Positions 53,057 through 56,813 of a stretch of DNA of 64,000 nucleotides are shown one piece after another. Under the pieces are notes generated by a model. The model saw only the letters and a list, made by a program, of their open reading frames with translations. It was not told the DNA's origin and ran no database searches. The DNA comes from Ilyomonas limi (GTDB lineage Bacteria; Bacteroidota; Bacteroidia; Chitinophagales; Chitinophagaceae): the NCBI RefSeq assembly GCF_005233845.1, contig NZ_SZQL01000005.1, forward strand, positions 62,001 through 126,000. Direction: 5' to 3'. Within the stretch, counting starts at the first letter, position 1, and each line of letters opens with the position of its first letter. The position numbers and the translations under genes were made by a program.

Positions 53057-54847
53057 ATGCCAAAGGTCGTTGTATTGGGCGGCGGCGTTGCGGGAATGAG
53101 TGCTGCTCATGAGTTGATAGAACGTGGTTTTGCAGTAGAAGTATTTGAGCGCCATAAACAATATGTGGGCGGAAAAGCACGCAGCGTGAATGTTGCCGGC
53201 TCCGATAAAACAGAGCCGGGCAAGTTTCTTCCCGGTGAGCATGGCTTCCGCTTTTTTCCTGGTTTTTATAAGCACATTATAGATACGATGAAGCGTATTC
53301 CATTCAGGCGCGCTGACGGCACTATGGCTACTGTGTTTGATAACCTGGTAGAAGTAAACCGTGTACGTATTGCACGCTTTGGAGCAGCTTCTATTAATTC
53401 TATAGTAAACTTTCCGCAGTCGTGGGCAGACGTTAAAGATGCTATTAACGCCTTTCATGCAAATACCGGACTAACGGAAGAAGAAAAAACCTTTTTTGCT
53501 GCTCGCGTATGGCAGTTGATGACCAGTTGCATGGACAGGCGGGTAAATGATTATGAAAAACTTGGCTGGCGCGAATATTTGCAGGCAGATAAATTTATAC
53601 GAAGAGATGCAGATGGAAAACCAAGTAAAGAACAGCCTTACGAATCGCTGCTGGTAGATGGCTTAACGCGCACGTTGGTAGCAGCAAACGCAAAATATGC
53701 AAGCACCAAAACCGGCGGCGATATTTTTTGCCAGTTACTCTTCAATATGGCTGATCCGAATGTGCATACAGACAGGGTATTGAATGGACCCACCAACGAT
53801 GCCTGGCTAAATCCATGGATAAACTACCTGGCTTCAAAAGGAGTTCAGTACCACTTCGACAGCGAAGTGCAAAGCATTAGCATGAAAGATGGACGCATAT
53901 CGGGGGCCACCATCTTGAACAAAACAACCGGAGCAACAATACAAGCAACCGGCGATTATCATATACTGGCTATACCGGTAGAACGCGCGGCACAACTTAT
54001 TAATGCCGATATGCTGGCTGCTGATCCAACAATGCAAGGCATCTTAACACTGGCGCCAAGCGTAGCCTGGATGAACGGAATGCAATTTTATTTATCGCAC
54101 GAAGTAGATGTAGTACACGGGCATTGTATTTATGCCGATAGCCAGTGGGCACTAACGTCCATTTCGCAACTGCAGTTTTGGAATAATTATGATATACAGG
54201 TGAGGGGAGATGGTAACATCAGGAGTATTTTATCGGTTGATATATCTAACTGGGAAACGCCGGGCTTTAATGGTAAAAAAGCAAGCGAATGCACTTATGA
54301 GGAGATAAAAGAAGAAGTATGGCTGCAATTGAAAACAAGCCTCAATGTAGATGGGCAAACGGTTCTGAGTGATGATATGTTGCAGGAATGGTATCTCGAT
54401 CACGACATACATACTGTAAAGCCGGATGATGACACTGATAAAGAACCACTGCTGGTAAATACTATTAACTCCTGGCCCTTACGCCCCGAAGCCAGCACTT
54501 TTATACCCAATTTATTTTTAGCATCCGATTATGTGCGCACCTATACCGACCTCGCTACTATGGAGGGCGCCAATGAGGCAGCACGCCGCGCTGTAAACGG
54601 TATTATTCACGCATCTCAAAGTAAAGCGGATGTATGTAAAATCTGGAACCTGCACGAGCCTTTATTGCTGACACCGTTCAGAATGCACGATGAGAAGCTG
54701 TATAAGCAAGGTATTCCCTGGGAGTTGTACGAACCGGAATGGTTGCAGGTTGGTTTGAAAGCAGTAGAATTTTTAGAGCATCTTTTTACTAAAAAGCATG
54801 CAACAACCGAAGCAAAAAATACCGAAATAAATCCTCCTGTTAAATAA
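53057..54847 (+). CDS. FAD-dependent oxidoreductase, phytoene-desaturase/hydroxysqualene-dehydroxylase-like
   Basis: A 596-residue flavoprotein with the N-terminal FAD motif VVLGGGVAGMSAAHELIERG, ending the second strand with VEVFERHKQYVGGKARS, the NAD(P)-binding-8/amine-oxidase arrangement used by carotenoid desaturases and HpnE-type enzymes. The C-terminal FAD contact is LFLASDYVRTYTDLATMEGA. PGEHGFRFFPGFYKHI is a further conserved active-site segment of this group. It starts an operon: the seven-helix gene follows after 5 bases and a cyclase overlaps that. With the neighbour's resemblance to terpene cyclases, a hydrophobic isoprenoid substrate at the inner membrane is the best guess. Confidence 0.85.
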   Translation: MPKVVVLGGGVAGMSAAHELIERGFAVEVFERHKQYVGGKARSVNVAGSDKTEPGKFLPGEHGFRFFPGFYKHIIDTMKRIPFRRADGTMATVFDNLVEVNRVRIARFGAASINSIVNFPQSWADVKDAINAFHANTGLTEEEKTFFAARVWQLMTSCMDRRVNDYEKLGWREYLQADKFIRRDADGKPSKEQPYESLLVDGLTRTLVAANAKYASTKTGGDIFCQLLFNMADPNVHTDRVLNGPTNDAWLNPWINYLASKGVQYHFDSEVQSISMKDGRISGATILNKTTGATIQATGDYHILAIPVERAAQLINADMLAADPTMQGILTLAPSVAWMNGMQFYLSHEVDVVHGHCIYADSQWALTSISQLQFWNNYDIQVRGDGNIRSILSVDISNWETPGFNGKKASECTYEEIKEEVWLQLKTSLNVDGQTVLSDDMLQEWYLDHDIHTVKPDDDTDKEPLLVNTINSWPLRPEASTFIPNLFLASDYVRTYTDLATMEGANEAARRAVNGIIHASQSKADVCKIWNLHEPLLLTPFRMHDEKLYKQGIPWELYEPEWLQVGLKAVEFLEHLFTKKHATTEAKNTEINPPVK

Positions 54848-54852
54848 TATAT

Positions 54853-55560
54853 ATGCCTGTTTTAGGAACAACTATTTTTCAATATTTAAAAGAGCCGCAC
54901 CCGTGGATAGATCTTACGAGATATACATGGTGGCAGGTAACCCTCTTTTTTGCCGGCTCCATGCTGTGGCTTGCATGTTATATAGCTACACTAAGAGATA
55001 TCAGGAAGAAAAAAACGGTTGACATACCGGCATCAGCCGTAATTCTAAACTTTGGCTGGGAAATAGCCGCATGTATATTTTTTGTGCCCGATATGGGTAA
55101 ACTGCTGGTTGCAGCATACTGGGCATGGATGCTTTGCGATTTATTTATATTTTATTCTCTGTTTAAATATGGCTACAAGCAGATGCGCATAGATTACTTC
55201 AGGCGGAATGCACATTATTTTATCCTTTCCGGTATTATTATTTCTTTTTTATCGCAGGCTGCATTTATGGTTCAGTACGATTTGCCTATGGCGCCCATTT
55301 CCGGTTACATCATCAATCTTATCATGTCCATAGCTTTCCTGTACCTGTTGTTTGTGCCCGGTTTTACAGGCTATTCACGTGTTGCAAAATGGAGCAAATT
55401 TTTAGGTACAGGCATTATCAGTATTATGTTTTTTACAAAGTACCCGTCCAACTATTTTCTTACTATTATGTATATTGCTGTAGCGTGCTTTGATGTGTTG
55501 TATATTATCCTGATGGAGAAAAAATTGAAGGGTACGCTCTCTTTATCTGTAACAGAATGA
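54853..55560 (+). CDS. seven-helix membrane protein resembling Pyr4/PaxB-type terpene cyclases
   Basis: A 235-residue protein with about seven hydrophobic helices and no signal peptide. It resembles Pyr4/PaxB membrane terpene cyclases in length and in motif order: AVILNFGWEIAACIF in helix 2 (Glu70), YWAWMLCDLFIFY in helix 3, NLIMSIAFLYLLF in helix 5, then GYSRVAKWSKFLGTGI before helix 6, and VACFDVLYI in helix 7 (Asp214). In Pyr4 an essential Glu in helix 2 and Asp in the last helix protonate the prenyl substrate; both have counterparts here. This is recognition by eye, not a search result. It is tightly coupled to the FAD enzyme (5 bases) and the nucleotide cyclase (4-base overlap). Confidence 0.6.
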   Translation: MPVLGTTIFQYLKEPHPWIDLTRYTWWQVTLFFAGSMLWLACYIATLRDIRKKKTVDIPASAVILNFGWEIAACIFFVPDMGKLLVAAYWAWMLCDLFIFYSLFKYGYKQMRIDYFRRNAHYFILSGIIISFLSQAAFMVQYDLPMAPISGYIINLIMSIAFLYLLFVPGFTGYSRVAKWSKFLGTGIISIMFFTKYPSNYFLTIMYIAVACFDVLYIILMEKKLKGTLSLSVTE

Positions 55561-56813
55561 GGAAGTTTCAAAGCTGGCTTTATACCTATTTTATTCCACA
55601 AAAGTATCATGAAGATGAGCTGCTCTTCAGAAAGGCGCGTCTTTTTGTTAATACAGTTGCCATCACATTTATATTCTCGCTCATTTATGTCGTTAACTCT
55701 ACTTTGCTGGCAATGAGTCATATCATGTGGCAAATAGGGCTTTATAGCATATTATTTTTATCATTGTTGTTTTGCCTGAGAGGCGGCCTTAGCTTATTTG
55801 CCTGCGGAAACATTTTTAGCTTTTTATTCTACAGTTCCGCTATCTACGATATTTACTACTCCGGTGGTTTGTATTCCAGCGTATTGCCCTGGTTAGCTAT
55901 CGTTCCTATACTTGCTTTACTTATTACGTCCGTTCGCAACGGGGTTGTATGGATGTTTATTTCACTGGTATCAGTTATCGTGGTTGGAACATTACAGTTG
56001 ATGCACTTTCCATTTCCTACAGAAGTTAAACAGGAATATATGGACCTGTTATTCTTCAATAGCTTTCCCGGCTTTATTGTTATTGTTTTTGTGATAGCTG
56101 CTGCAATGGAAACGGCTTACACCGGCTCAATGAAAAAACTGGAAGAGAAAAATAAAATTATTGAAGAAGAAAAGAAGCGCTCCGATGAACTGCTGCTGAA
56201 CATCTTGCCTGCAGAAATAATGGAAGAGCTAAAAGAAACGGGCAAAACCACGGCACACAATTACGATTTGGTTACCGTGCTTTTTGCCGATTTTGTAAAT
56301 TTTACAAACATTATTGAAGAACTGCCACCCGAAGAACTAGTAGCTGGCATTGACACTTACTTTGGAACTTTTGATGCGATTGTTGAAAAATTTGGTGTGG
56401 AAAAAATAAAAACGGTGGGCGATGCTTATATATGTGTTTCGGGGCTGCCTTCAGTAAATAGTAGCAATCCAACACTCATGGTGGATGTTGCGCTGGAGAT
56501 GATGGAGGCAGTGGAGCAGCTAAAAAAGCAATGCAGGGCAGCGGGCAAAATCTGTTTCGACATTCGCATTGGTATTCACTCCGGCCCTGTGGTGGCCGGC
56601 GTGGTAGGAGTGAAGAAGTTTGCGTACGATATTTGGGGCGATACCGTAAATACGGCAGCCCGTATGCAGCAATGCAGCGAGCCGGGTAAAATAAATATTT
56701 CCAATACTACCCACGATCTAATAAAGCACCGGTTTGCATGCACCAAACGCGGCAAAATAGAAGCAAAACACAAGGGGTTGATAGATATGTATTTTGTAGA
56801 AAAACGAAAGTGA
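55557..56813 (+). CDS. membrane class III adenylate cyclase
   Basis: A 418-residue protein: an N-terminal membrane region of about six helices (residues 20-180), a coiled-coil linker (KKLEEKNKIIEEEKKRSDEL) with the signalling-helix element LLLNILPAEIMEELKETG, then a class III cyclase domain. Metal Asp residues lie in LFADFVNFTNI and TVGDAYICVSG, the purine-specifying Lys in KIKTVGDAY and Asp in YDIWGDTVNTAARM, with the transition-state Asn/Arg in the same segment. The Lys/Asp pair favours ATP over GTP. ATGA overlap with the seven-helix gene implies co-translation. The membrane domain may sense a lipid product, but this is speculation. Confidence 0.92.
   Translation: MRKFQSWLYTYFIPQKYHEDELLFRKARLFVNTVAITFIFSLIYVVNSTLLAMSHIMWQIGLYSILFLSLLFCLRGGLSLFACGNIFSFLFYSSAIYDIYYSGGLYSSVLPWLAIVPILALLITSVRNGVVWMFISLVSVIVVGTLQLMHFPFPTEVKQEYMDLLFFNSFPGFIVIVFVIAAAMETAYTGSMKKLEEKNKIIEEEKKRSDELLLNILPAEIMEELKETGKTTAHNYDLVTVLFADFVNFTNIIEELPPEELVAGIDTYFGTFDAIVEKFGVEKIKTVGDAYICVSGLPSVNSSNPTLMVDVALEMMEAVEQLKKQCRAAGKICFDIRIGIHSGPVVAGVVGVKKFAYDIWGDTVNTAARMQQCSEPGKINISNTTHDLIKHRFACTKRGKIEAKHKGLIDMYFVEKRK

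What the first reader, a model, noticed from the sequence alone, without database searches (positions are those of the whole stretch)
53057..56813. Three-gene operon linking an isoprenoid-type FAD enzyme, a Pyr4/PaxB-like membrane cyclase and an adenylate cyclase
Seen: gaps of 5 bases and a 4-base ATGA overlap; the middle protein has about seven helices with NFGWE in helix 2 and CFDVLYI in helix 7, and the segment order of Pyr4/PaxB membrane terpene cyclases, including the G-x-S...KxLGT stretch. Known: that family makes fungal meroterpenoids, and bacterial members such as DmtA1 of the drimentine pathway act on prenylated substrates; phytoene-desaturase-like flavoenzymes act on isoprenoids. Inferred: a compact lipid-modifying pathway whose product or state may be sensed by the cyclase's membrane domain. 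A class III cyclase in such an operon is unexpected.
Basis: partly seen in the sequence, partly recalled or inferred. Interest (0 to 1): 0.68.

Follow-up and report, generated by a model that had tools for sequence, protein, structure and literature searches.

The report
Terpenoid-enzyme operon paired with cAMP sensor
Some soil and water bacteria carry a compact operon that couples two predicted isoprenoid-lipid enzymes to a membrane adenylate cyclase, and its relatives in other species swap the cyclase for a histidine kinase while keeping the same membrane sensor, so it may be a self-made lipid signal wired directly to its own receptor.

Summary
In detail: three same-strand genes (53057-54847, 54853-55560, 55557-56813), a 5-base gap and an ATGA overlap. 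The middle protein scores above Pfam's cut-off for Pyr4-like transmembrane terpene cyclases and keeps the family's conserved acids (E70, D96, D214). The third is a class III adenylate cyclase with an intact catalytic hexad and a membrane domain resembling Rv1625c/Cya. The first is an HpnE/phytoene-desaturase-like flavoenzyme, below those families' cut-offs.

The linkage is real and wider than reported. Gene order recurs in Bacteroidota at 37-67% identity. The 6-TM sensor domain occurs 13 times in 284 related genomes, always beside this flavoenzyme, with output swapped between cyclase and histidine kinase. The middle gene is a Pyr4-like protein, an unrelated membrane protein (DUF6989), or absent. 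Signal-linked Pyr4-like proteins form one clade (100/98), in which an MpaB/Lcp-like oxygenase can replace the flavoenzyme.

Best explanation (0.5, inferred): the enzymes make an isoprenoid lipid that the 6-TM domain senses. No activity, substrate or ligand is shown. Main rival: the Pyr4-like protein, whose model resembles SWEET/KDEL-receptor folds, is itself a 7-TM receptor subunit. I found no published description of this system.

The parts
53057..54847 (+). FAD-dependent oxidoreductase, 596 aa, amine-oxidase/HpnE/phytoene-desaturase-like
   Evidence: PF01593 47.6 bits over cut-off 19.8; TIGR03467 HpnE 76.8 bits, below cut-off 283; 138 near-invariant residues in 21 homologues
54853..55560 (+). 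Pyr4-like transmembrane terpene-cyclase family protein, 235 aa, seven predicted helices
   Evidence: PF25129 53.3 bits over cut-off 27; all 13 scanned signal-linked members hit the same family; model m8dd9700a51b1
55060..55062 (+). codon of Glu70 (NFGWE, helix 2), predicted acid residue
   Evidence: 17 of 17 operon-type and 29 of 34 relatives; replacing it by Ala in a homologue costs 5.7 bits against PF25129
55138..55140 (+). codon of Asp96 (helix 3)
   Evidence: 34 of 34 relatives; 5.1 bits
55492..55494 (+). codon of Asp214 (CFDVLYI, helix 7)
   Evidence: 34 of 34 relatives; 5.3 bits
55557..56813 (+). class III adenylate cyclase, 418 aa
   Evidence: PF00211 185 bits; D245, K285, D289, D358, N365, R369 all present
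55557..56156 (+). N-terminal 6-TM sensor domain (residues 1-200), MASE6/MASE11-like below Pfam cut-off
   Evidence: model matches Rv1625c/Cya Z 16.6 and human AC9 Z 12.6; the same domain is fused to histidine kinases in L100, L105-L107
56157..56252 (+). signalling-helix linker (residues 201-232) with LLLNILP motif
   Evidence: sequence; motif used to split the ten cyclases compared
56253..56801 (+). cyclase catalytic domain (residues 233-415)
   Evidence: PF00211 match 233-415

Best explanation
The operon is a self-contained lipid-signal cassette. The flavoenzyme oxidises (dehydrogenates or otherwise activates) an isoprenoid lipid, and the Pyr4-like membrane protein protonates and cyclises or isomerises it using E70/D96/D214. 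The resulting lipophilic molecule stays in or near the membrane and binds the 6-TM domain of the co-encoded adenylate cyclase, changing cAMP output. In relatives the same sensor domain drives a histidine kinase instead, so the fixed part is 'lipid in, signal out' and the output is exchangeable. SHOWN by computation: gene order and its conservation; family membership of the middle and third proteins; retained catalytic residues; exclusive association of the sensor domain with the flavoenzyme in the sampled family; output swapping. INFERRED: that the two upstream proteins are active enzymes, that the substrate is an isoprenoid, that their product is the ligand, and the direction of information flow.
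For: The operon is conserved across distant Bacteroidota. All 13 copies of the 6-TM domain found in 284 family genomes sit beside the flavoenzyme, and its output is a cyclase or a histidine kinase. Pyr4-family membership holds with conserved acids. Cyclase catalytic residues are intact in 17 of 18. Signal-linked Pyr4-like proteins are one clade (100/98). The replacement upstream gene belongs to the MpaB/Lcp family, whose Lcp members cleave polyisoprene (PMC5522427, abstract), so isoprenoid chemistry may recur although the enzyme family changes. Between congeneric L049 and L050 the flavoenzyme is 91% identical, while both the Pyr4-like protein (31%) and the cyclase membrane domain (21%) are replaced. 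Precedents: lipophilic CAI-1 drives Rv1625c through a grafted CqsS 6-TM domain (PMC4821796), and C18:1 fatty acids inhibit Rv1625c through its membrane domain (PMC12505454).
Against: No substrate, product or ligand is known, and no prenyltransferase or prenyl synthase was recognised in the operon. Some loci have flavoenzyme plus sensor with no middle gene (L100, L105, L106) or with the unrelated DUF6989, so the Pyr4-like protein cannot be essential to the principle. The Pyr4-like model resembles SWEET/KDELR/cystinosin, which are transporters and receptors. The correlation of Pyr4-like protein with sensor divergence (r about 0.9) is not significant once one four-member cluster is collapsed.
Confidence: 0.5

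Rival explanations
1. The Pyr4-like protein is not a synthase but a 7-TM receptor or regulatory subunit that contacts the cyclase's membrane domain directly; the flavoenzyme makes or modifies its ligand.
For: The model's only clear structural neighbours are KDEL receptor, cystinosin and SWEET (Z 10.5-15.0, next unrelated row 6.8). The protein co-varies with the cyclase membrane domain and not with the flavoenzyme (with the caveat on sampling). In L048, L054 and L150 the partner cyclase has no predicted membrane segment, so the Pyr4-like protein could be the membrane input. PMC4821796 itself proposed that an accessory membrane protein may be the true sensor.
Against: Acids shared with the wider Pyr4 family, including Streptomyces and Nostoc relatives outside any signalling context, are retained. 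Several loci lack the protein or have an unrelated one. A shared fold shows no function, and Z up to about 13 can arise for helical bundles.
Confidence: 0.22
2. Information flows the other way: the cyclase or kinase senses membrane state (for example quinone pool, lipid packing, redox) and its signal adjusts the lipid-modifying enzymes encoded with it.
For: cNMP-binding proteins lie next to the operon in several loci (L045, L050, L052, L099, L104). A precedent for a bacterial cyclase responding to respiratory quinones is CyaC of Sinorhizobium (PMC10463352, abstract).
Against: Exclusive pairing of this one sensor domain with one flavoenzyme subfamily fits ligand-receptor better than a general membrane sensor. 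The window locus has no cNMP-binding gene beside it.
Confidence: 0.15
3. An ordinary secondary-metabolite operon with a cyclase that merely travels along.
For: Bacterial Pyr4-like cyclases characterised so far serve meroterpenoid and related terpenoid pathways (PMC13307353).
Against: No prenyltransferase, polyprenyl synthase, P450 or epoxidase was recognised beside it; the link to signalling outputs recurs with different output classes; the signal-linked proteins are a separate clade.
Confidence: 0.05
4. The terpenoid product acts on the cyclase's catalytic domain, as the diterpene forskolin does on mammalian cyclases, rather than on the membrane domain.
For: A terpene-cyclase-like enzyme next to an adenylate cyclase; forskolin is a diterpene activator of adenylate cyclase (abstract of PMC10056624).
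Against: In other loci the same membrane domain carries a histidine kinase and no cyclase; bacterial homodimers use both sites catalytically (general knowledge), and all six catalytic residues are present.
Confidence: 0.03

Closest known systems
CqsA/CqsS and LqsA/LqsS autoinducer synthase-receptor pairs
   Same: A gene that makes a lipophilic signal is linked to a 6-TM sensor; a CqsS membrane domain can drive a class III cyclase (PMC4821796).
   Different: Different enzyme chemistry (flavoenzyme plus Pyr4-like protein rather than an aminotransferase-type synthase, general knowledge); native outputs include a cyclase; whether the ligand is exported is unknown.
Rv1625c/Cya-type membrane adenylate cyclase
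   Same: 6-TM domain plus catalytic domain; membrane-domain model matches 7YZK at Z 16.6, rmsd 3.8, 184 aligned.
   Different: Co-encoded with predicted lipid enzymes; its membrane domain is also found on histidine kinases.
Pyr4-like transmembrane terpene cyclases (fungal Pyr4; bacterial XiaH, TylF, ZigF)
   Same: PF25129 above cut-off, compact 7-helix protein, conserved acids.
   Different: Sits in signalling operons without a recognised prenyltransferase or epoxidase; separate clade from non-signalling relatives; activity unknown.
HpnE / phytoene desaturase flavoenzymes
   Same: Dinucleotide-binding motif and overall superfamily match.
   Different: Far below the equivalog cut-offs; a distinct subfamily tied to the sensor.

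Membership tests
Pyr4-like transmembrane terpene cyclases (PF25129) | Profile score above curated cut-off | tested here: met
   53.3 bits vs 27; 13 of 13 scanned relatives match the family
Pyr4-like transmembrane terpene cyclases (PF25129) | Compact protein with seven membrane helices | tested here: met
   235 aa; helices 26-53, 60-76, 83-106, 120-141, 144-165, 176-196, 201-225
Pyr4-like transmembrane terpene cyclases (PF25129) | Conserved acidic residues in helices 2 and 7 | tested here: met
   E70, D96, D214 conserved and weighted by the family profile. Equivalence to Pyr4's essential Glu and Asp is from memory; no fungal sequence was aligned
Pyr4-like transmembrane terpene cyclases (PF25129) | Acids line one cavity | not testable with these tools
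Pyr4-like transmembrane terpene cyclases (PF25129) | Cyclisation activity on a prenylated or isoprenoid substrate | not testable with these tools
   needs an assay
SWEET/PQ-loop/KDEL receptor fold | Fold similarity to solved members | tested here: inconclusive
   Z 15.0, 3.3 A over 176 residues to 6i6b, well above unrelated rows, but model pLDDT 74 and no Foldseek E below 0.001; no PQ-loop or MtN3 profile hit in any of 13 members
Class III adenylate cyclase | Two metal Asp, adenine Lys and Asp, Asn and Arg | tested here: met
   D245, D289, K285, D358, N365, R369
Rv1625c-type 6-TM membrane domain | Fold match over the whole domain | tested here: met
   7YZK Z 16.6, AC9 Z 12.6; next distinct rows 9.6 and 6.1
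MASE6 / MASE11 | Profile score above cut-off | tested here: not met
   window protein 15.9 and 17.1 bits vs 27.4 and 27.3; one relative, L107, reaches 27.7 vs 27.4 for MASE6
Hydroxysqualene dehydroxylase HpnE (TIGR03467) | Equivalog cut-off | tested here: not met
   76.8 vs 283 bits
Phytoene desaturase (TIGR02731) | Equivalog cut-off | tested here: not met
   46.3 vs 569 bits

The most novel reading that the evidence does not exclude
The Pyr4-like protein is a bacterial 7-TM receptor (or enzyme-receptor) with a SWEET/KDEL-receptor-like fold that couples directly to adenylate cyclase, histidine kinase, Ser/Thr-kinase-cyclase or SpoIIE outputs, with an isoprenoid-derived ligand supplied by a flavin or heme oxidoreductase: a prokaryotic analogue of a 7-TM receptor-cyclase pair, built on a terpene-cyclase fold.
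Probability: 0.2. Interest if true: 0.93.

Novelty: new variant of a known kind. Interest (0 to 1): 0.77.

Why it matters
What the membrane domains of adenylate cyclases do is described as still an open question (PMC12414865), and the nature of their ligands was called impossible to predict (PMC4821796). Here a Rv1625c-like membrane domain is genetically tied to two candidate ligand-making enzymes, and natural swaps of enzyme, sensor and output provide ready-made tests. If right, it would give a biosynthetically paired ligand for this receptor class and a signalling role for Pyr4-like terpene cyclases, so far characterised in natural-product pathways.

Tried and rejected
DUF6989 as a diverged Pyr4-like protein: no profile-profile similarity (hhalign probability 0.3%). 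Solved structures by sequence for the Pyr4-like protein and DUF6989: none. The flavoenzyme subfamily outside the family in a 394-genome phylum sample: found only in the window's own genome at E 1e-60, although Algoriphagus carries it. Pyr4-like protein/sensor co-variation: strong (r 0.89-0.90) but driven by one four-member cluster; r 0.36-0.42, p 0.12-0.20 without it, so it is treated as suggestive. Plasmid-borne relatives in Streptomyces and Nostoc: no adenylate cyclase or kinase next to them and no clear terpenoid cluster. Literature searches for the cyclase-terpene link and for DUF6989 found nothing relevant. sigma-70-type promoter scan: not informative for Bacteroidota, and no TAnnTTTG motif upstream.
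Full report
OBSERVATION. The three frames, the 5-base gap (TATAT) and the ATGA overlap are exact. The middle protein is a Pyr4-TMTC family member by profile (53.3 bits, cut-off 27). The third protein is a class III cyclase (185 bits). The first is a flavin amine-oxidase-superfamily protein (47.6 bits, cut-off 19.8), closest to HpnE and phytoene desaturase but far under their cut-offs. The window lies in a genome of 5.88 Mb; a named relative with a 62% identical flavoenzyme is a Chitinophagaceae MAG (L045).

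CONSERVATION. tblastn of the three proteins on fetched loci gives the same order in L044 (Algoriphagus aestuarii), L045, L046, L047 (two flavoenzyme copies), L049, L050 and L051, and in L043, whose contig ends 36 residues into the cyclase. L052 has flavoenzyme-DUF6989-cyclase-Pyr4-like-cyclase. Identities are mostly 37-67% (33-36% for the middle protein of L049 and L051), so this is not recent copying.

THE CORE IS FLAVOENZYME PLUS SENSOR. The flavoenzyme subfamily is in 16 of 294 sampled family genomes. In 15 of them a cyclase or kinase sits beside it; the exception is L101. Its neighbours are: (a) Pyr4-like protein plus cyclase; (b) DUF6989 (PF22497) plus cyclase (L099, L102-L104) or, in the convergent locus L107, DUF6989 plus histidine kinase; (c) a histidine kinase or hybrid kinase directly (L100, L105, L106); (d) Pyr4-like protein plus a 1716-residue Ser/Thr kinase-AAA-GAF-cyclase (L048, L136). 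The N-terminal membrane domain of the window's cyclase is homologous to that of the histidine kinases (BLAST E down to 7e-26; hmmsearch 57-158 bits). A profile of this domain finds 13 copies in 12 of 284 family genomes, and every one is in the flavoenzyme locus (coordinates compared). A naive hypergeometric probability, worked by hand, is of the order of 1e-18, but shared ancestry is ignored; by genus it is 9 of 9. DUF6989 hits in the genomes tested are likewise only at these loci.

THE WIDER CLADE. Pyr4-like proteins elsewhere in Bacteroidota sit next to an MpaB/Lcp-type oxygenase and a kinase-AAA-GAF-cyclase (L054, L055, L150), a SpoIIE phosphatase (L056, L148, L149) or histidine kinases (L065, L066). 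In a maximum-likelihood tree of 40 proteins, the 23 found beside an oxidoreductase and/or signalling gene form one side of a branch with 100/98 support. The 17 others, including the second copy in the window's own genome (G000:C23), the f38 set of the phylum sample, Streptomyces and Nostoc, form the other side. Shuffled labels need 13.1 changes on average, and 0 of 500 need as few as one. Labels were assigned from neighbours. L059 and L147 have only the oxygenase visible (L147 at a contig end). 20 of the 23 have a cyclase, kinase or SpoIIE gene within two genes, against 27 of 626 background genes in the same loci.

ACTIVE-SITE EVIDENCE. In 34 relatives E70 is kept in 29 (all 17 operon types), D96 and D214 in 34, and N66 in 33. 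Replacing W69, E70, D214, D96 and N66 by Ala in a homologue costs 7.6, 5.7, 5.3, 5.1 and 3.6 bits against PF25129; the other conserved positions tested cost 0.9-2.8. These are therefore family-wide positions. The cyclase has D245, K285, D289, D358, N365 and R369; 17 of 18 proteins compared keep all six, and Lys plus Asp indicate ATP preference (general knowledge).

STRUCTURE. The cyclase membrane domain model (pLDDT 74, four sequences) matches Rv1625c/Cya at Z 16.6 (3.8 A, 184 residues) and human AC9 at 12.6. The Pyr4-like model (pLDDT 74, five sequences) matches KDEL receptor, cystinosin and SWEET at Z 10.5-15.0, after which unrelated rows start at 6.8. Foldseek ranks the same proteins first but with E above 0.01. 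I know of no published link between Pyr4 and this fold, and one search showed none. It needs a deeper alignment and a fungal Pyr4 control.

CO-VARIATION. Across 9-10 operons the divergence of the Pyr4-like protein tracks that of the cyclase membrane domain (r 0.89-0.90, p at most 1e-4) and not the flavoenzyme (r about 0), with a weaker link to the cyclase catalytic domain (0.05-0.39). Collapsing one cluster (L044, L045, L046, L050) removes significance. Individual comparisons remain striking: L049 and L050 share a 91% flavoenzyme but 31% Pyr4-like protein and 21% membrane domain; L044 and L046 share an 86% Pyr4-like protein and 68% membrane domain but only 51% flavoenzyme and 55% catalytic domain.

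MECHANISM. Membrane domains of class III cyclases can be receptors for lipophilic molecules: CAI-1 through a grafted CqsS domain (PMC4821796) and C18:1 fatty acids on Rv1625c itself (PMC12505454). A cassette encoding two putative isoprenoid-modifying enzymes with such a receptor is most simply read as ligand synthesis plus ligand sensing, with exchangeable output. The strongest alternative is a direct 7-TM partner, a possibility named in PMC4821796 as an accessory membrane protein that acts as true sensor. The variants without a middle gene show that flavoenzyme plus sensor can suffice.

DOWNSTREAM. In L045, L050, L052, L099 and L104 the operon is followed by a membrane-HEAT protein and a small cNMP-binding protein, with an HD-domain protein as well in L050, L052, L099 and L104. 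In the 18 genomes tested, five of six homologues of the HEAT protein lie at such loci, one of them at the MPAB-type locus L054. The window's genome lacks that HEAT protein, so its cAMP effector is unknown.

KNOWN OR NEW. A 2026 survey of bacterial Pyr4-like cyclases kept 264 of 1107 sequences by terpenoid neighbours and does not mention signalling partners in the main text read (PMC13307353; supplement not read). I found no description of this system. I rate it a new variant of synthase-receptor signalling cassettes.

Noticed in passing
L048 10694-15844, L054 4072-9243, L055 10219-15225, L150 977-6046: Giant Ser/Thr kinase-AAA-GAF-cyclase proteins (1668-1723 aa) with little or no predicted membrane segment are encoded directly after Pyr4-like proteins.
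   Followed up: partly
L055, L056, L059, L078, L147-L150: An MpaB/Lcp-type (PF09995) oxygenase takes the flavoenzyme's place beside the Pyr4-like protein in a wide range of Bacteroidota.
   Followed up: partly
L052 7501-8184; L099, L102-L104, L107: DUF6989 (PF22497) membrane proteins substitute for the Pyr4-like protein beside flavoenzyme and sensor; conserved Asp/Glu/Trp suggest an enzyme, unrelated by profile comparison.
   Followed up: partly
L045, L050, L052, L054, L099, L104: A module of membrane-HEAT protein, small cNMP-binding protein and usually an HD-domain protein sits next to the cyclase and may be its effector.
   Followed up: partly
genome G000 contig C23:80204-80716 (L060): A second Pyr4-like protein in the window's genome, outside signalling context and in the other clade.
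   Followed up: yes
L070-L077, L079: Genomes of family f38 in the phylum sample (probably Chlorobia, by gene content) carry a Pyr4-like gene, several of them close to ATP synthase beta; some are near a geranylgeranyl-reductase-like gene, and five lack the helix-2 Glu.
   Followed up: no
model of window 54853-55560: Predicted SWEET/KDEL-receptor-like fold for a Pyr4-family protein, possibly an unrecognised structural relationship.
   Followed up: partly
L101 7798-9591: The flavoenzyme alone, with no sensor or membrane partner beside it, in genome G253.
   Followed up: partly
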